A stretch of DNA of 64,000 nt from a virus, in IMG/VR virus record IMGVR_UViG_3300021138_000002, positions 81,097 through 145,096 of that record. One strand, written 5' to 3'. Positions 45,301-52,878 of this stretch are shown here, one piece after another (the stretch's first letter is position 1; each line of letters begins with the position of its first letter). A program made the translations under genes and the position numbers. The notes beneath the pieces are model-generated. The model was not told the DNA's origin, did not search any database, and saw only the letters and a program-made list of their open reading frames with translations.

Positions 45301-47634
45301 ATGGCAAAAGAAACCACAGAAAAAAAACTTTACGATCTACTGGCAACTAGAGATTACGACAACTTCCAGGCCCTCGACAGCCGCACGGGAAAAACACCGG
45401 TCAATCCAGAAACTGGTGCACAAGATGTTAGTCGAGCTGACATGTTTACCTTTGACTGGAGCTCCAGCCGTGGTAAAAACTACGGCACAGCAGTGATCCT
45501 GCTCACACCCGAACACGACCTTGAATTGTACTTTGGCGATAATCTGGGCAAAACCATGGAAGACACTGAAGACAAAAACGAGTGGTTTGCGTTCATGGAA
45601 CAGCTGAGACACTTTGCTACAAGAACAAACTTCAACGGATTTAGACCGTTAAATATCAATCAACTGAGACACAGCCTGCAAGGACAGGCTGCGATCAAAG
45701 AAGGCCTGTTTGAATCGTGGCAAGGACGTCGAAACATGAGCTGGAGTGCGGGTCCTACCGAAGCCAGACTCATGATCCGTCACAAACGCGATCTTGATGA
45801 GGCTGATGCACGCCATCTTTATATCGAAAGCCTGTTTATCGAAACGGTAGAAGGTGAGCGTTACAAGTTGCCATTTACTAAATTAGCTGGTGGTAGAGCC
45901 ATGCTGGAACATGTACGCCAAGGTGGCAAGCCCTATGACATTCGCGGTCAACACATTGTAGACATAGTGGAAGAACTCAATGTACTGGGCCGATTTGAAC
46001 GCGGTGTTGCCAGAGAAACAGTGTTGGAAGGAGATACAGCTCAGCTGGTGTCAGAAGCTGCAGAATATCGCAACACACTCAAGACCAGTCTCAAACGTCT
46101 TGGCACCGGCCGTGGATATGCCGAATATTTTGAATCATGGAATCCCATAGACCTTACCGAACAGGATGTGGTAATTGAAAGTTTGAAACACATGTTTGTC
46201 AAACAGACATTGGATGCAAGAATTGAGCAGGCCTTACCTGTGCTGGCTCGTATACAACAACAAGGAAACGCTATGAAAGAAGCCAACATATTTGAAGCCT
46301 GGGCCAATCGCCTGGTAGAAGGAACCTGGAGCACACCGGACACTCCAGAAGCTCAAAAGAAACTGTTAGATTTTATGAGTCGAGAACAACCGGTGGGCGC
46401 CGATGCCACTGACGCCACCGAGCAACTGTATGATTTGTTGGGTGACGATGAGCTATTTGATCAGCTGGATGCACTGGCACAAGAAGATCCTAATGCTGAC
46501 TGTCGTCAACTGGTACTTGATCGCATGCAAGAACTCGGCGACCATCCTGATGTGCGTGCTGTACTTGACCAATTAAACATTGATGCTGATGCCGAAATGA
46601 ATCCGCCTGAGAGCTTGCCAGCTGACTTGGACAATCAAGAACAAGACATGGCCGAAGCAGGATACGCTAGCCGACACCCACGAACTGGCGGTATTGCCGG
46701 CGGTCGAGACGAGTGGGCTCAAATGGCTGGAGGCAAAAAACAAGGTGATACTTTGGCTGGAAGGAGAAAACCCGGACACGAAGTTGCCCATGGTCAAGCA
46801 CTGGGGTGGAAAGATCACGATGAAAAAACCGAGCAAGGCAAACTCAAAGCTGCGTTAAAAGCCAAGATGGGTATAGCAGAAGATGCAGTCAACTCTTTAC
46901 GCAGAGCCGCCGGACTAACAGAAAATGTGTTGCGTGATAGTACCGGCAGTACCTTGGATCATATCGCTGATACATTTAAACGTGATATTCGAGATTTTGA
47001 AGAAACCGGTAATCTCAGCGAAGAATTATATGATGCATTGTACGACTACTACCAAGATGACATGCCATACGGTGTTCAAAAAGCTCGTACCGGTGACCCA
47101 CATCAGTGGATCGCAGATAGAATCACTCAAGACTTAGGGTTACAATCAACCAGTCTAAGCCCATGGGAACAGTTCAAATTACGCAACAATGCGGCTCGTG
47201 ACCAAGCAGGTATGGAACCCAATCCGGATTTCCAAGAAGAACGTGATCCACATTCGGTAGATGGTGGCATGGCGAATGATCTGTTACAAGACAACGTCGC
47301 TGGTCGAGTTGCCGGATCTATCGCCGGAGCAGAATTGGGACCGATAGGATCGGCCATTGGCGGAGCCATTGGTGATGAACTTACTGACGAAGCTGTATGC
47401 AACATGAGCGAAGCCGGTGAACCGTGTCCGGTACATGGCCTAGAAGAGTGCTGGGGTAGTTCAATGCCCGTTACCAACGAAGAAGGATTTGGACTGAACC
47501 CAACTCCGGCCGCCATGGAAGAAAAGTCACCGTTGGCTGGTATCTATGGTCATTCAGGCAAAATGAAGGAAGTGGGCAAAGACACCAGTTGGTTGGATCG
47601 CCTAAAAGAGCTTTCTGGCATGGCCCGTTCATAA
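45301..47634 (+). CDS. Large virion-associated protein of unknown function (777 aa)
   Basis: Acidic, Gly/Ala/Glu-rich. N-terminal ~300 residues look folded (MFTFDWSSSRGKNYGTAV; ADARHLYIESLFIETVEGERYKLPFTKLAGGRAM), then a hydrophilic region with protease-like sites (AIKE|GLF, RLVE|GTW), and a C-terminal Gly/Ala-rich membrane-like helix (VAGSIAGAELGPIGSAIGGAIGDEL) followed by C...CPVHG. Proteins of this style accompany terminase genes in aquatic T4-like phages. Likely head- or injection-associated; not proven. The stop overlaps a late promoter core. Confidence 0.6.
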   Translation: MAKETTEKKLYDLLATRDYDNFQALDSRTGKTPVNPETGAQDVSRADMFTFDWSSSRGKNYGTAVILLTPEHDLELYFGDNLGKTMEDTEDKNEWFAFMEQLRHFATRTNFNGFRPLNINQLRHSLQGQAAIKEGLFESWQGRRNMSWSAGPTEARLMIRHKRDLDEADARHLYIESLFIETVEGERYKLPFTKLAGGRAMLEHVRQGGKPYDIRGQHIVDIVEELNVLGRFERGVARETVLEGDTAQLVSEAAEYRNTLKTSLKRLGTGRGYAEYFESWNPIDLTEQDVVIESLKHMFVKQTLDARIEQALPVLARIQQQGNAMKEANIFEAWANRLVEGTWSTPDTPEAQKKLLDFMSREQPVGADATDATEQLYDLLGDDELFDQLDALAQEDPNADCRQLVLDRMQELGDHPDVRAVLDQLNIDADAEMNPPESLPADLDNQEQDMAEAGYASRHPRTGGIAGGRDEWAQMAGGKKQGDTLAGRRKPGHEVAHGQALGWKDHDEKTEQGKLKAALKAKMGIAEDAVNSLRRAAGLTENVLRDSTGSTLDHIADTFKRDIRDFEETGNLSEELYDALYDYYQDDMPYGVQKARTGDPHQWIADRITQDLGLQSTSLSPWEQFKLRNNAARDQAGMEPNPDFQEERDPHSVDGGMANDLLQDNVAGRVAGSIAGAELGPIGSAIGGAIGDELTDEAVCNMSEAGEPCPVHGLEECWGSSMPVTNEEGFGLNPTPAAMEEKSPLAGIYGHSGKMKEVGKDTSWLDRLKELSGMARS

Positions 47635-47637
47635 ATA
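47632..47637 (+). promoter_or_regulatory. Late promoter core TAAATA over a stop codon
   Basis: TAA of the 777-residue gene begins TAAATA. A sigma70-type promoter follows within 10 nt, so the downstream gene may be transcribed early and late. Confidence 0.45.
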
Positions 47638-47640
47638 TTC

Positions 47641-47669
47641 TTGTAATAAACTAGAACGCATGCTATAGT
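47641..47669 (+). promoter_or_regulatory. Sigma70-type promoter TTGTAA-N17-TATAGT with extended -10
   Basis: -35 TTGTAA 47641-47646, 17-nt spacer, TGCTATAGT ending at 47669. The start ATG 47711 lies about 40 nt downstream. Confidence 0.6.
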
Positions 47670-47710
47670 AACACATGCGTTCAACAGGCAACAGAGATAG
47701 GCAACAACAA

Positions 47711-48448
47711 ATGCAACCATATACATACTTTATTCGATGGACCAAATTAAACATCAACTACTATGGTGTTAGATACGCACAAGATTGCGATCCAACTGAC
47801 CTTTGGAATCCATACAAAACCTCATCAAAACATGTGGCCGAGTTTATTGCCAAATACGGTGAACCCGATGTTATCCAGGTAAGAAAAACTTTTAATGATA
47901 CTCAAGCGGCCCGGTTGTGGGAAAATCGTGTATTGAAACGCATGAAGGTAGTCGGGAATGATAAGTGGTTGAATCAAACAGATAATAAATCCATTGCTCC
48001 ACAATACGGAGAAGACCATCCGCATTATGGTAAAAAGGGCGAGGCCCATCATTGCTATGGTAAACCAAATCCTGGAGCTTCTAAAGCACAAAAACAAAAA
48101 TGGGCCAACTTCATTGGTCCGCATCCTTGGAGTGATCCAGAATTCATAGCTCGCAATGTAGCAAGTAAACTTGGTGATCGCCATCACATGAAACAGCCAA
48201 AGGTAGTAGAAAAGGTATCTGGTAAAAATAATTGGATCTATCAAAAACCCGGGGCACTCGAAGCAAGAAGAAAACAGTTTATAGAAATGAACAAAGCTCG
48301 CAAAGGCACTCATTATCGTAGACTTTGTTGTGAGCATTGTGGAAAAGATTATTCTTCCGTCCAAATTAAACAACATCAAAAACGATGTGAGATGAATTTA
48401 ACCAGTTTAGTAGCAAACACTGACAGCAGAGTGTATAATCAGCTGTAA
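47711..48448 (+). CDS. GIY-YIG/homing-endonuclease-like protein with zinc finger (245 aa)
   Basis: Start MQPYTYFIRWTKLNINYYGVRYA is the usual N-terminus of this endonuclease-like family; ATG 47675 in the same frame is less likely. LWNPYKTSSKHVAEFI follows, then NUMOD-like repeats HPHYGKKGEAHHCYGKPNPGA and a C-terminal CEHCGKDYSSVQIKQHQKRC zinc finger. Located just before gene 32, a common site for homing genes. The ATG is preceded by a repeated AGGCAAC motif also present in the gene 32 leader. Confidence 0.75.
   Translation: MQPYTYFIRWTKLNINYYGVRYAQDCDPTDLWNPYKTSSKHVAEFIAKYGEPDVIQVRKTFNDTQAARLWENRVLKRMKVVGNDKWLNQTDNKSIAPQYGEDHPHYGKKGEAHHCYGKPNPGASKAQKQKWANFIGPHPWSDPEFIARNVASKLGDRHHMKQPKVVEKVSGKNNWIYQKPGALEARRKQFIEMNKARKGTHYRRLCCEHCGKDYSSVQIKQHQKRCEMNLTSLVANTDSRVYNQL
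48434..48439 (+). promoter_or_regulatory. -10 box TATAAT before gene 32
   Basis: Perfect TATAAT inside the end of the endonuclease gene; only a weak -35 (TAGCAA, 17 nt upstream). It would start a leader of about 60 nt that contains the repeats. Confidence 0.45.
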
Positions 48449-48508
48449 GGCAACATTTAAGGCAATCTTAAATCAACATTTTAAATCAACTTAGAAAGGC
48501 AACATAAA
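48447..48508 (+). promoter_or_regulatory. Gene 32 leader with five near-repeats, possible translational operator
   Basis: Units of 11-13 nt: AAGGCAACATTT, AAGGCAATCTT, AAATCAACATTTT, AAATCAACTTAG, AAGGCAACATAA. The last unit supplies AAGG 13 nt before ATG 48509. T4 gp32 represses its own translation by cooperative binding to an unstructured leader; these AU-rich, structure-poor repeats would suit that. This is an inference. Confidence 0.55.
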
Positions 48509-49522
48509 ATGGCTAGCTTATCAGAAATTCGTGCCCGTTTAGCGGCATCAGAAAACAAACCCGGTACAGGTGGATCCGGTGGTGGAGATGGATCAATTTA
48601 TCCTCATTGGAATATGTCAGAAGGTGAAAGCGCCACTGTACGCTTCTTACCCGATGGTAACAGCAAAAACACATTCTTTTGGGCCGAACGACAATTACTT
48701 CGTTTGCCATTCAACGGCATCAAAGGCGAGATGGACTCAAAACAGGTCTACGTGCAAGTGCCTTGTATGGAAATGTGGCAAGAAACTTGCCCAGTGCTTA
48801 CCGAAGTACGCACTTGGTTCAAAGACAAAAGCCTAGAAGAAATGGGTCGTAAGTATTGGAAAAAACGTTCATACATTTTCCAAGGCTTTGTGCGTGACAA
48901 TCCCTTGGCCGATGATAAAACACCAGCCAACCCAATTCGTAGATTTATCATTGGACCTCAGATCTTTGCTATCATCAAAGGTGCCCTGATGGATCCAGAA
49001 TTGGAAGAATTACCAACAGACTTGATGCGTGGCTTGAATTTTACTATCAGCAAAACAGCCAAAGGTGGATTTGCTGACTACAACACTAGCAAGTGGGCTC
49101 GTAAAGAATCTGCCTTGACCGAAGCCGAACAGGCAGCCATTGCCGAACACGGCCTGTATGATCTTGGATCATTTTTGCCCAAAAAGCCAACCGAAGCCGA
49201 AATCAAGGTCATCAAAGAAATGTTTGAAGCATCGGTAGATGGTCAGAGCTATGATATCGAACGTTGGGGTGCATACTTCAGACCAGCAGGTGTAGCAGCT
49301 CCAGCCGGTGCCACACCCGCAGTAGATGATGACGCTCCGGCACCAGTGGTTAAAACACAGGCATCAGGTTATGTGGCACCAAATTCTGGTGCAGTAGCCA
49401 GCGACATCGATGAAGATGACGAACCAGCAGTGGCCACAACACCGGTAGTTGCCAAAGCACCTGCTGGTAACACCCAGGACATCTTGGCCATGATCCGGAG
49501 TCGTCAAAAAACCACTAACTAA
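48509..49522 (+). CDS. 32: Single-stranded DNA-binding protein, T4 gp32-like (337 aa)
   Basis: The N-terminus MASLSEIRARLAASE is the basic cooperativity segment. The OB-fold core is visible: FLPDGNSKNTFFWAERQLLRLPF near residue 46, a short Cys pair (PCMEMWQETCPV near 80), YWKKRSYIFQGFVRDNP near 112 and FTISKTAKGGFADYNTSKW near 178. The C-terminus is acidic and Pro/Ala-rich, then ends in ILAMIRSRQ. gp32 coats ssDNA in replication and recombination. Stop and next start overlap (TAATG). Confidence 0.9.
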   Translation: MASLSEIRARLAASENKPGTGGSGGGDGSIYPHWNMSEGESATVRFLPDGNSKNTFFWAERQLLRLPFNGIKGEMDSKQVYVQVPCMEMWQETCPVLTEVRTWFKDKSLEEMGRKYWKKRSYIFQGFVRDNPLADDKTPANPIRRFIIGPQIFAIIKGALMDPELEELPTDLMRGLNFTISKTAKGGFADYNTSKWARKESALTEAEQAAIAEHGLYDLGSFLPKKPTEAEIKVIKEMFEASVDGQSYDIERWGAYFRPAGVAAPAGATPAVDDDAPAPVVKTQASGYVAPNSGAVASDIDEDDEPAVATTPVVAKAPAGNTQDILAMIRSRQKTTN

Positions 49523-50181
49523 TGTTATCGTATTTAGATCACATTATATTCCCAGACCGCTGTGAGGTAATAGAAGTTGTACCGTCACAGCGGTATGTGT
49601 ATCCAATTTTCAAAAATGGTAGATCAAGTTTATCTATCACTGCTGAAGAAAATAACTGGCGAATAAAAATAAACGATCAAATTAAAAAAATTAACAGTAT
49701 TGATGTAATTTTGAGAGATCCACAGGATAGATTGATTTCAGGAATCAATACATTCATACAGCATACGATCAGGGACAATCCTGGGCTTGATCACAGCACA
49801 GTAGAATGGTTTGCGTTAAATTATTTGTATCTAAATCGACATTATTGCCCACAATTTTTATGGTTAATAAATTTGTCAAGATATTTGAATGCAGATGCAA
49901 CATTGAATTTTTTACCAATGACAGCCGTTGATACCATTACAACTCTCAACACAAAACCAAGAGGTATTGAACCGGCGACCAACAGATTGATCACTCAAGT
50001 CGGCCAGATAAAAAACAACGAAATGTATCATCGAATAGACTGCGTGTTAGTCGGTTGCATTGGTCGATCAATGAGCTTTGATCATCTCATGCAACATATA
50101 AAAACTACCGACCCTGAGGCATATGATTATGTGGTTGGGCACGCACAAAAAATTTTAAATCCAACCTATGCATTGTCCTAG
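49522..50181 (+). CDS. Sulfotransferase-like protein (219 aa)
   Basis: PIFKNGRSSL at residues 28-37 resembles the PAPS 5'-phosphosulfate loop of Sulfotransfer_2-type enzymes, and VILRDPQDRLISGINTF at 62-78 matches the 3'-phosphate-binding RDPxxRxxSGxN motif. The rest is divergent and AT-rich. It would transfer sulfate to a glycan or similar acceptor; acceptor unknown. It is translated from the gene 32 mRNA (TAATG overlap) and overlaps the next radical SAM gene by 14 nt. Confidence 0.5.
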   Translation: MLSYLDHIIFPDRCEVIEVVPSQRYVYPIFKNGRSSLSITAEENNWRIKINDQIKKINSIDVILRDPQDRLISGINTFIQHTIRDNPGLDHSTVEWFALNYLYLNRHYCPQFLWLINLSRYLNADATLNFLPMTAVDTITTLNTKPRGIEPATNRLITQVGQIKNNEMYHRIDCVLVGCIGRSMSFDHLMQHIKTTDPEAYDYVVGHAQKILNPTYALS

Positions 50182-51115
50182 ACTAGATCATTTTGTTAGA
50201 TTCAATCACAATGGCACAGTCAGCCGATGTGGTCACATGATCAACATACGGCAATTTGATTCGTTGGAGGACATGGACTCAAGTGACTGGCTGGCGGATA
50301 TCAAAGAACAATTTGAACAAAATCGGTGGCCCATCGAATGCACCAGATGTAAACAAACCGAAGAAATCAATCAAACAAGTATTCGACTCAACGCTATCGA
50401 ATTTGACAAAAAACAAACTCAAGAAAACTATCTAACGGTAGGAGGAGTATTGGACAATGTGTGCAACAGTGCTTGTTTGACCTGCAACGAACGGTTGAGT
50501 ACAAAAATTGGCAGTTTACGAACATTAGATTATCCTATCATTGATAACACACGGCGTTTTTGGTCTTTGCCATTGGATCGAGTGGTGCATCTGGACATCA
50601 ACGGTGGAGAGCCCAGTGCCAGCAAAAACTACAAAAATATATTGTCTAATCTTCCAGAAAATGTCAAAAGCGTCAGAGTCAATACCAATTGTTCGTTGGT
50701 AATTGCTGAACTGGAAGACATTGTGAAAAAAGGTATTGAAGTCACGGTCACAGTCAGTTTAGACGGAATTGGTCCGGTACACGATTATGTGCGTTGGCCA
50801 ATCAAATGGGATAAATTTTACAAAAATCTAATGACCTACAAGTCAATGGCATTGACCGAATTGAACACCTGGACCACAGTGAGTGCGTTAAATATCGGTG
50901 ATTTTGACAACATCCGTGCGTTTGTCAACGAACACGAGTTGTTGCACTCGTGGGCCTTGTTGAACACGCCGGATGAATTAAATGTTAAATACACAAATAC
51001 ACTGACAGAACCCTATCGTGGAGTCATTGACAATATGGTAGCAGTAGATAAAAACAATCAACAAGAACTAGATAAATTTATCAGTCAACAACATCAATTG
51101 CGAAACATCACATGA
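50168..51115 (+). CDS. Radical SAM protein with N-terminal twitch-type Cys cluster (315 aa)
   Basis: N-terminal Cys set: MHCPRLDHFVRF, SRCGHM and ECTRCKQ. Core motif CNSACLTC near residue 99 and NGGEP near 146. SLDG...VHDYVRWP is the third conserved block seen in all five twitch members. Overlaps the sulfotransferase-like gene by 14 nt, so the two are co-translated. Substrate unknown. Confidence 0.8.
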   Translation: MHCPRLDHFVRFNHNGTVSRCGHMINIRQFDSLEDMDSSDWLADIKEQFEQNRWPIECTRCKQTEEINQTSIRLNAIEFDKKQTQENYLTVGGVLDNVCNSACLTCNERLSTKIGSLRTLDYPIIDNTRRFWSLPLDRVVHLDINGGEPSASKNYKNILSNLPENVKSVRVNTNCSLVIAELEDIVKKGIEVTVTVSLDGIGPVHDYVRWPIKWDKFYKNLMTYKSMALTELNTWTTVSALNIGDFDNIRAFVNEHELLHSWALLNTPDELNVKYTNTLTEPYRGVIDNMVAVDKNNQQELDKFISQQHQLRNIT

Positions 51116-51166
51116 TTTGATGTTTGCAGTATGAAAAATATTTTTTAAAAAATTAACCGGAGTATC

Positions 51167-51715
51167 ATGATGAAAATAGCCATCACTGGACACACAGCTG
51201 GAATAGGACAAGCATTAGCCAATGAATATGCCAGTGCCGGCTATGAAATTCTAGGATTGAGCAAGCGAGAAGGCAACAATATTCGCAACACTCCCAAGAT
51301 CTGTGATCAAATTGAATCTTGCGATGTTTTTGTCAACAATGCCCAAGCTGGATATTCGCAGACTGAATTGTTGTTTGAAATGGTCGATCGTTGGCAAGGT
51401 ACCAAAAAACATATCGTGGTGATCAGTACCATGATGACACAAGACCCGGTATCGGTCCTTCCAGGCCTGGGCATGGATCATTATCGTGTACAAAAAGTTG
51501 CATTGGAAGAAGCAGTCAAGCAAATACGTAACCGTCGATTGGGAGTTAGATTGACTGTAGTAAGGCCCGGAAATGTTGCGACCAGTAGCGACAAAACAGT
51601 ACCTCCGGCGGCTGATGTAACCAACTGGGCACACACTCTGATAAAATTATTTGATCTGGCAGAAACCAACAATTTGTCTATTCCAGATATTTCTCTTGGG
51701 GCATTGAACAAATGA
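51167..51715 (+). CDS. Short-chain dehydrogenase/reductase (182 aa)
   Basis: SDR signature: TGHTAGIG nucleotide loop at residues 7-14, NNAQAG in the NNAG position, and the YRVQK catalytic Tyr-xxx-Lys pair near residue 107, followed by VRPGNVAT. It is shorter than classical SDRs (about 250), as in atypical or sugar-acting members. Two ATGs (51167, 51170) fit; the second has better spacing to CGGAG (7 nt). Its stop overlaps the next radical SAM start (ATGA). Co-expressed with radical SAM genes, so likely to act on the same small-molecule or sugar substrate. Confidence 0.85.
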   Translation: MMKIAITGHTAGIGQALANEYASAGYEILGLSKREGNNIRNTPKICDQIESCDVFVNNAQAGYSQTELLFEMVDRWQGTKKHIVVISTMMTQDPVSVLPGLGMDHYRVQKVALEEAVKQIRNRRLGVRLTVVRPGNVATSSDKTVPPAADVTNWAHTLIKLFDLAETNNLSIPDISLGALNK

Positions 51716-52878
51716 CACCCAAGGATATTTTGACCAATCGACATTTTTGTCCGTTGCCCTGGACTGGATTGATGTACAACTTTGATGGAACTGTAAAAAA
51801 TTGTATTCGCAGTGATAGAGCCACAGGAACACTGGGCAATATTAAAAATACACCTATCAAAGAAATAATGTCAGGTCCTGACAACATGAGCAAGCAAACC
51901 AACATGACAGCAAACAAACCGGCTGCCGGTTGTCATACCTGTTATGATCTGGAACGTGGCAAAGAAGGGTTTGATATTATTAGCGACCGTATTTTTTACA
52001 TACGCGAATTCAAACGTACACCAGTTGATACCTATCAGATTGGTAATTTTGATTTGCAAACCATTGATGTACGCTGGACCAATTTGTGCAATTTTGCCTG
52101 TGTGTATTGTAATGCCAGTTTTAGCAGCCGTTGGGCTGATGAATTAAATTTCAAAATAGAGACACCCTCGGCAACTCAGCTGGCCGATTTTAAAAAATAT
52201 ATCCATGATCATGCTGGTCAATTGAAACATGTGTATCTAGCCGGTGGTGAACCCTTGTTGATGAAAGAAAATCTAGAACTGCTTGCACAACTGGATCCCG
52301 ACGTCAATCTGAGGATAAACACCAATCTCAGTAGGGTTGATACCGGTGTGTTTGATGCTGTATGCAAATTTAAAAATGTACATTGGACTGTGAGTGTGGA
52401 AACTCAAGAAGAAGAATTTGAATACATCAGATTTGGAGGCCGTTGGCAAGATTTTTTGACGAATTTACAAACAATCAATCAATTGGGTCACAAAATAAGT
52501 TTCAACATGCTTTGGTTTTTGCTAAATTACAACAGCGTGTTTGACTGTGTGGACTATTTAAAAGGTTTGGGATTTCATAACAACAGTTTTGTAATCGGGG
52601 CATTACTCACTCCAGAATACCTAAATGTTAGGCATTTGCCTGATCATGTGTTAAACTTGTTAAAGACGAAATTAGAATCACGTATTGCTGAAAATCCGGG
52701 ATATCTACTAGAAGATAGTTATCGAAACATGTTGCACTATATAACACAACCAATTGACCAAGATCTTTCCGGATCGTTTGACCAATTGGCCGTGATGGAT
52801 CAAAGACGTGGTGTTGACAGCAGCAAGATTTTTACAGAATTATACAAATTGAAAGAGGAAAACAATCATGGCCAATAA
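51712..52878 (+). CDS. Radical SAM protein with N-terminal twitch-type Cys cluster (388 aa)
   Basis: FCPLPWTGLMYNFDGTVKNC at residues 12-31 and GCHTCYD near 73 form the auxiliary-cluster region. Core motif CNFACVYC near 125, GGEP near 173, VSVET...EYIRFGGRW near 225. It overlaps the SDR by 4 nt and uvsX by 11 nt, so radical SAM, SDR and UvsX are translationally linked. Substrate unknown. Confidence 0.85.
   Translation: MTPKDILTNRHFCPLPWTGLMYNFDGTVKNCIRSDRATGTLGNIKNTPIKEIMSGPDNMSKQTNMTANKPAAGCHTCYDLERGKEGFDIISDRIFYIREFKRTPVDTYQIGNFDLQTIDVRWTNLCNFACVYCNASFSSRWADELNFKIETPSATQLADFKKYIHDHAGQLKHVYLAGGEPLLMKENLELLAQLDPDVNLRINTNLSRVDTGVFDAVCKFKNVHWTVSVETQEEEFEYIRFGGRWQDFLTNLQTINQLGHKISFNMLWFLLNYNSVFDCVDYLKGLGFHNNSFVIGALLTPEYLNVRHLPDHVLNLLKTKLESRIAENPGYLLEDSYRNMLHYITQPIDQDLSGSFDQLAVMDQRRGVDSSKIFTELYKLKEENNHGQ

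What the first reader, a model, noticed from the sequence alone, without database searches (positions are those of the whole stretch)
48447..48508. Five-unit AU-rich repeat leader of gene 32
Between a perfect TATAAT and the ATG of gp32 lie five 11-13-nt near-repeats of AAGGCAACATTT / AAATCAACATTTT type. T4 gp32 represses its own translation by cooperative binding to an unstructured leader; this array could be an independent design of the same autoregulation. A related AGGCAAC repeat is before the upstream endonuclease start.
Basis: partly seen in the sequence, partly recalled or inferred. Interest (0 to 1): 0.6.

Follow-up and report, generated by a model that had tools for sequence, protein, structure and literature searches.

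The report
Structured repeat leader controlling phage gp32
The stretch just before a phage's single-strand DNA-binding protein gene is a real, conserved RNA control element: short repeats plus two small hairpins, one of which hides the start codon. It probably lets the protein limit its own production, as in phage T4 but with a different RNA design; binding by the protein has not been shown.

Summary
Five 11-13 nt near-repeats lie at 48447-48508 between TATAAT (48434-48439) and the gp32 ATG (48509), beyond chance (0 of 200 dinucleotide shuffles). The interpretation needs correcting: the leader is not simply unstructured. Across 68 distinct leaders of relatives, the array resolves into two or three AGGCA(AC) elements around a hairpin (P1; window 48455-48461/48467-48473), followed by a weak helix (P2; 48477-48483/48505-48511) that pairs with the start codon and leaves the Shine-Dalgarno in its loop. 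RNAalifold on 35 related leaders independently predicts exactly P1 and P2. P2 arms change together on the gp32 tree. An exact 5-nt complement to the start codon region occurs in 57 of 67 gp32 leaders but only 5% of other genes in these genomes. A more distant gp32 clade has different, strongly covarying hairpins and almost no AGGCA. In 19 related records the array sits only before gp32 and the GIY-YIG endonuclease inserted upstream of it. This fits gene-specific, probably autogenous, translational control analogous to T4 gene 32. The T4-type pseudoknot is absent in the window, and gp32 binding is untested. Verdict: real; new variant of a known kind.

The parts
48411..48439 (+). Predicted sigma70-type promoter of gp32 (TAGCAA, 17 nt, TATAAT); its -10 lies inside an inverted repeat ACAGC 48423-48427 / GCTGT 48442-48446. 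It overlaps the 3' end of the endonuclease ORF.
   Evidence: Sequence; the same arrangement with covarying arms in L009, L010, L016, L032, L058, L059. Fold z-score of the window's own copy is not significant (0.5).
48447..48507 (+). Five-unit degenerate repeat array; predicted transcription start about 48446, so the mRNA would begin at the array.
   Evidence: 0 of 200 shuffles as repetitive. Start site inferred from the -10 position only.
48448..48454 (+). AGGCAAC element 1
   Evidence: 2.69 AGGCA per leader in 68 related leaders against 0.36 in shuffles.
48455..48473 (+). Hairpin P1: ATTTAAG - GCAAT - CTTAAAT
   Evidence: p=0.004 against shuffles; P1 is predicted by RNAalifold in 35 related leaders; arms differ between subgroups (ATCTAA/TTAGAT, ATGCC/GGCAT, GAGTAGT/GCTACTC, GATACGT/GCGTATC).
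48477..48483 (+). 5' arm of P2 (CATTTTA), complementary to TAAAATG at the start codon
   Evidence: Own-versus-swapped test, contingency, phylogenetic contrasts, background control, RNAalifold.
48494..48503 (+). Shine-Dalgarno GAAAGG fused to the last AGGCAAC element, in the loop of P2
   Evidence: Sequence; in the majority subgroup the SD is a separate AGGAG.
48505..48511 (+). 3' arm of P2 (TAAAATG) containing the gp32 start codon
48509..49522 (+). gp32-type single-stranded DNA-binding protein, 337 aa
   Evidence: phrog_1192; PF08804 below its cut-off; hhalign to T4 gp32 E=4.4e-6; RB69 gp32 structures E=1.7e-5.
47711..48448 (+). GIY-YIG-type homing-endonuclease-like ORF inserted between the virion-protein gene and gp32; its last codons (NLTSLVANTDSRVYNQL) are read from the pre-existing gp32 promoter region. 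Start at 47711 is preferred over 47675 from the L010 homologue.
   Evidence: phrog_314 homing endonuclease E=8.6e-8; GIY-YIG class assigned by eye from the YYGVRYA motif; homologue in L010 (67%); L009 lacks it and shows the continuous intergenic region.
47641..47705 (+). Leader of the endonuclease: TTGTAA-17-TATAGT promoter in an inverted repeat GAACGCATG 47654-47662 / CATGCGTTC 47674-47682, then AGGCAAC 47686-47692 and 47699-47705. Resembles the 5' half of a gp32 leader.
   Evidence: weak match to the gp32-leader model at 47683-47715 (17.6 bits, E=0.38).
47630..47637 (+). CATAAATA, T4-late-promoter-like motif overlapping the stop codon of the virion-protein gene
   Evidence: Sequence; most sites of this kind in the genome lie 13-47 nt upstream of an ORF start.

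Best explanation
The 62-nt leader is a structured cis-acting translational control element (operator) of the gp32 gene. Shown by comparison: AGGCAAC elements flank a 5' hairpin (P1), and a weak A/U-rich helix (P2) pairs with the start codon and leaves the Shine-Dalgarno, fused here to the last AGGCAAC, in its loop. Inferred: when gp32 exceeds the available single-stranded DNA, it nucleates at P1 and the AGGCAAC elements, spreads over the low-structure leader and the P2 loop, and blocks ribosome entry; free ssDNA draws it off and P2, being weak, opens to the ribosome. The logic is that of T4 gene 32, built on a different RNA.
For: Repeats beyond chance. RNAalifold on 35 relatives predicts only P1 and P2. 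P2 own pairing 12.49 against 11.02 (sd 0.18, max 11.5) when arms are swapped between leaders. Arm types match: CT starts have CATAG in 34/35, AA starts CATTT in 8/8, AT starts CATAT in 7/7. On starred branches of the gp32 tree the arms change together in 5 of 5, about 3 of 3 and about 5 of 6 independent contrasts, with almost none opposed. A start-codon complement occurs in 57/67 gp32 leaders against 7/134 other genes. In 19 records, including one of 300 kb, intergenic AGGCA arrays were seen only before gp32 and the endonuclease upstream of it, which favours a gene-specific regulator. Distant gp32 clade: 10 of 17 pairs compensatory, covariation 0.471 against 0.176. T4 and RB69 gp32 are proven autogenous repressors acting on diverged leaders (PMC535899).
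Against: No binding or expression data. The class A leaders fold no better than shuffles by energy (mean z -0.41; window -0.97), so the case rests on covariation. P1 has little covariation inside the main subgroup. A few leaders lack a P2 5-mer (L010, L040, L072, L083 and others), including L010, the closest relative. No pseudoknot is possible between the window's P1 loop (GCAAT) and downstream sequence. That the bound regulator is gp32 itself is inference.
Confidence: 0.6

Rival explanations
1. The leader is a structured translational element, but the regulator is another phage or host factor (a RegA-like protein, S1, or a small RNA pairing with AGGCAAC), not gp32.
For: AGGCA(AC) is strongly conserved in sequence in this clade, more like a recognition site than a generic SSB target. 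No binding data tie it to gp32.
Against: The element was found at gp32 only, not before other replication genes. RegA (PF01818) was not found in this record or in the relatives searched, and was found in the T4 positive control (some records are fragments).
Confidence: 0.2
2. The helices only set translation strength or mRNA stability (a constitutive leader): tandem AGG words act as ribosome standby sites and P2 tunes initiation, with no feedback.
For: Each AGGCAAC unit contains AGG, which can pair with the anti-Shine-Dalgarno; P2 is weak (leader MFE about -5.5 kcal/mol for 48446-48511).
Against: Conservation extends to GCAAC after AGG, which standby pairing does not need; the main subgroup has its own AGGAG in addition. 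Other genes in these genomes rarely have start-codon helices.
Confidence: 0.15
3. gp32 activates rather than represses: as a helix-destabilising protein it melts P2 and opens the start codon.
For: The start codon is in the helix and gp32-type proteins melt helices (general knowledge).
Against: No precedent in the papers read; T4 and RB69 gp32 repress (PMC535899).
Confidence: 0.03
4. The repeats are a chance or slippage-derived A/T-rich array without function.
For: Low complexity, short units.
Against: 0/200 shuffles; conservation and covariation across dozens of lineages.
Confidence: 0.02

Closest known systems
T4 / RB69 gene 32 autogenous translational operator
   Same: Leader of a gp32 gene; 5' folded element followed by A/U-rich repeats that run into the ribosome-binding site; a GIY-YIG endonuclease (SegG in T4) directly upstream whose reading frame runs into the leader region (PMC535899; T4 annotation).
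   Different: The window has a simple hairpin, not a pseudoknot; the repeat is AGGCAAC/AATCAAC rather than UUAAA; the start codon is in a predicted helix, whereas the RB69 region -1 to -45 is unstructured in probing (PMC535899).
RNA phage MS2/R17 coat-protein operator (from general knowledge)
   Same: A hairpin that includes the start codon, with the Shine-Dalgarno in the same structure.
   Different: Different protein, different phage class, much stronger hairpin; resemblance of layout only.
T4 gene 43 (DNA polymerase) operator
   Same: Hairpin upstream of the ribosome-binding site bound by the replication protein it encodes (PMC3014915).
   Different: Single hairpin with specific loop; no repeat array; no start-codon helix described there.
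STAXI motif (tandem pseudoknots near ssb genes)
   Same: Repeated element near single-strand-binding-protein genes (PMC2864571).
   Different: Made of pseudoknots, often with UUCG loops; no Rfam family matches here.

Membership tests
T4-type gene 32 autogenous operator | Lies in the leader of a gp32-type SSB gene | tested here: met
   phrog_1192 E=3.8e-62; hhalign to T4 gp32 E=4.4e-6; PDB RB69 gp32 E=1.7e-5.
T4-type gene 32 autogenous operator | 5' RNA pseudoknot as nucleation site | tested here: not met
   P1 is a plain hairpin; its loop GCAAT has no complement (AUUG or UUGC) in 48474-48511 (read). A pseudoknot candidate does exist in the PA5oct leader (L254).
T4-type gene 32 autogenous operator | Low-structure 3' region with UUAAA/UAAA repeats over the ribosome-binding site | tested here: inconclusive
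   Two UUAAA words exist (48468-48472, 48481-48485) but in or next to helix arms; the main repeat is AGGCAAC/AATCAAC; P2 is predicted in this region.
T4-type gene 32 autogenous operator | gp32 binds the leader and represses its own translation | not testable with these tools
   Needs protein and RNA.
Rfam-described cis-regulatory RNA | Match to a curated covariance model | tested here: not met
   No family at gathering threshold in 144 kb of this genome; only chance-level matches around the leader.
Homing endonuclease inserted next to gene 32 (SegG-like arrangement) | Homing-endonuclease family match, and an empty site in a relative | tested here: met
   phrog_314; L009 has the continuous intergenic region without the ORF. 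Direct relation to SegG and nuclease activity were not tested.

The most novel reading that the evidence does not exclude
A family of gp32 leader RNAs in environmental jumbo phages in which a normally sequence-indifferent SSB reads a specific repeated RNA word (AGGCAAC) and holds the start codon in a switchable helix, with the scaffold rebuilt repeatedly in different clades (AGGCA arrays, covarying hairpins, a pseudoknot candidate in PA5oct) while the feedback is kept.
Probability: 0.3. Interest if true: 0.7.

Novelty: new variant of a known kind. Interest (0 to 1): 0.5.

Why it matters
How gp32 tells its own mRNA from other nucleic acid is an old open question. Known operators come from T4 and close relatives, RB49 was reported to lack the pseudoknot, and wider study was called for (PMC535899, PMC3014915). 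This leader family offers many natural variants with a defined, testable layout: a recognition word, a hairpin and a start-codon helix. It also shows a second case of a GIY-YIG endonuclease settling directly in a gene 32 leader region.

Tried and rejected
1. A genome-wide AGGCAAC regulatory word: rejected, since the word is at chance frequency in the window and outside the two leaders its clusters lie in coding-type sequence. 2. Known Rfam element: none. 3. A T4-like pseudoknot in the window: no complement to the P1 loop. 4. Ordinary thermodynamic significance of the leader: not found, so covariation was used instead. 5. A covariance model from the main subgroup (R1) ranks gp32 leaders on top but finds the window's own divergent leader only at E=0.13, so it does not by itself place the window in that subgroup. 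6. The idea that all TATAAT-type leaders carry an endonuclease: wrong; of the loci examined only the window and L010 have it. 7. RegA as regulator: not found; the first search had no positive control, the second had T4. 8. Kissing loops between hairpins of the distant clade: looked for by eye, not consistent.

Full report
What is there. The window is the last 64 kb of a 145,096-base virus record. At 48509-49522 lies a gp32-type single-stranded DNA-binding protein. T4 gp32 and this family align by profile (E=4.4e-6), and the family profile finds RB69 gp32 in the PDB. Its best relatives in named phages are those of PA5oct-type Pseudomonas phages (50% identity) and other jumbo phages. Between TATAAT (48434-48439) and the ATG lie five near-repeats. 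They are more repetitive than any of 200 dinucleotide shuffles.

Comparison with relatives. The leaders were then read off and identical ones collapsed, leaving 127, of which 68 (the window included) belong to the first set, called class A here. The main layout is CACAGGCAAC - ATCTAA(n)TTAGAT - AGGCAAC - ACATAGGCAAC - AGGAG - ACTATGG (alignment A1). Class A leaders hold 2.69 AGGCA words each, against 0.36 in shuffles; those of the distant clade only 0.25. In the window P1 reads ATTTAAG/CTTAAAT, as in L036, L050, L055 and L080.

Two helices. RNAalifold on A1, without guidance, predicts two helices only: P1, and P2, which pairs the start codon with a stretch roughly 20-35 nt upstream. P2 shows CATAG/CTATG, CATTTTA/TAAAATG, CATATT(A)/(T)AATATG and CCATAA/TTATGG in different leaders. 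Swapping upstream arms between leaders lowers the mean pairing score from 12.49 to 11.02 (sd 0.18; the highest of 500 swaps is 11.5). On a gp32 protein tree the state of the two bases before ATG changes 23 times. In independent contrasts on supported branches the upstream arm follows it, for the AA, AT and CT types, almost without exception; each single test is too small to reach 0.05. For the TT type the link is weaker (8 of 14 leaders have the arm). As a background, a 5-nt exact complement to the last two leader bases plus ATG occurs upstream of 7 of 134 other genes in the same records, 3 of 53 among A/T-rich ones, and 57 of 67 gp32 leaders. Related leaders are not independent, so the Fisher p-values printed there should not be taken at face value. 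Leaders may also move between phages as blocks by recombination, so contrasts may count moves of one paired leader rather than new pairings; the existence of four differently paired types does not depend on that.

Energy. The helices are A/U-rich and weak. The class A leaders have a mean fold z-score of -0.41 and the window -0.97. The structural claim therefore rests on covariation, not on stability. P1 in the window alone beats 99.6% of shuffles.

The distant clade. In the L084-type clade (alignment A2) the leader has other hairpins: a P1 with freely varying, fully paired arms (6 pairs, 5 with compensatory change, 100% of cells paired) and a small hairpin GAGA-CCA-TCTC / AAGA-CCA-TCTT / GACA-CCA-TGTC before the Shine-Dalgarno. 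Whole-structure covariation is 0.471, against 0.176 in shuffles and at most 0.135 when partners are slid. So a structured gp32 leader is general in this group, and the AGGCAAC array is one clade's version.

Specificity. Searching 19 records of relatives with a loose three-unit pattern found the array at gp32 in most of them; the remaining matches look like coding sequence, though they were not annotated one by one. In the fetched loci no other gene has an intergenic array except the endonuclease of L010, a relative of the window's. This is what autogenous control predicts and what a global regulator does not.

The endonuclease. The ORF at 47711-48448 matches a homing-endonuclease family (phrog_314). 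Its relative is present in L010 (67% identity). L009, a close relative, has the virion-protein gene 188 nt before gp32, with no ORF between, and a continuous intergenic sequence that matches both flanks. The ORF's last codons are read from what in L009 is gp32 promoter sequence. T4 has the same situation: segG, a GIY-YIG gene, lies directly before gene 32 and overlaps the pseudoknot (PMC535899). The endonuclease's own leader, with promoter, inverted repeat and two AGGCAAC words, resembles the 5' half of a gp32 leader.

Promoters. In relatives the -10 of the gp32 promoter lies in an inverted repeat whose arms vary (mean fold z -2.64 and -2.62 in the two main groups). Since a transcript from that promoter would contain only one arm, the repeat probably matters for transcripts that start upstream, or as DNA; this is not resolved. 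CATAAATA-type motifs, as in T4 late promoters, are no more frequent than in shuffles (19 seen, 20.6 expected), but most lie 13-47 nt before an ORF start.

Interpretation. Shown: a real repeat array; two conserved helices, one occluding the start codon; gene-specific occurrence. Inferred: translational control; gp32 as the regulator; the order of binding. T4 and RB69 gp32 are proven autogenous repressors on diverged leaders, and each represses the other's (PMC535899), which makes the same logic here likely; but the pseudoknot that T4 needs is absent from this leader. I therefore call it a new variant of a known kind, at about 0.6 for autogenous control and about 0.9 for a functional structured leader. 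No description of this leader was found in the papers searched; that search covers open-licence papers only.

Noticed in passing
window 47711-48448; L009; L010: GIY-YIG-type endonuclease ORF inserted just upstream of gp32, its C-terminal codons made from the older gp32 promoter region; L009 is the empty site. Same arrangement as T4 segG/gene 32.
   Followed up: yes
Class A and L094-L173 leaders, about 60-110 nt upstream of gp32: The -10 box of the gp32 promoter lies in a covarying inverted repeat in most relatives, although a transcript from that promoter would carry only one arm. Purpose unclear.
   Followed up: partly
L254 (Pseudomonas phage PA5oct), about 45-80 nt before gp32: Hairpin AGTTTTGC/GCAAAACT whose loop AACCC can pair with GGGTT downstream: a T4-like pseudoknot candidate followed by A-rich sequence. 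Covariation not tested.
   Followed up: no
L256 (Agrobacterium phage Atu_ph07), last 60 nt before gp32: Another repeat array before a gp32 gene, CACAATTTAG / CACAATTAG / CACAATTTA / CACAACTAAGG, unrelated in sequence to AGGCAAC.
   Followed up: no
L126, L139, L145, L151, L159, L164, L168, L170 leaders: Hairpin such as GTTGTC-TCC-GACAAC whose loop (CUCC) could pair with the gp32 Shine-Dalgarno (GGAG).
   Followed up: no
L092:4718-5150 (record position about 64,718-65,150): About 430 nt without a convincing ORF after a second GIY-YIG-looking ORF, with a P1/AGGCAAC-like start (gp32-leader model 20.0 bits, E=0.11); no Rfam family (best S15 leader, E=0.17, below cut-off).
   Followed up: partly
window 6016, 10587, 28421, 32159, 36011, 45286, 47630: T4-late-promoter-like CATAAATA / GCTAAATA motifs placed 15-45 nt before ORF starts.
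   Followed up: partly
window 50168-52878: Radical-SAM-type proteins (one with a SPASM domain) and an SDR-looking ORF directly downstream of gp32; unusual cargo for a phage replication region.
   Followed up: no
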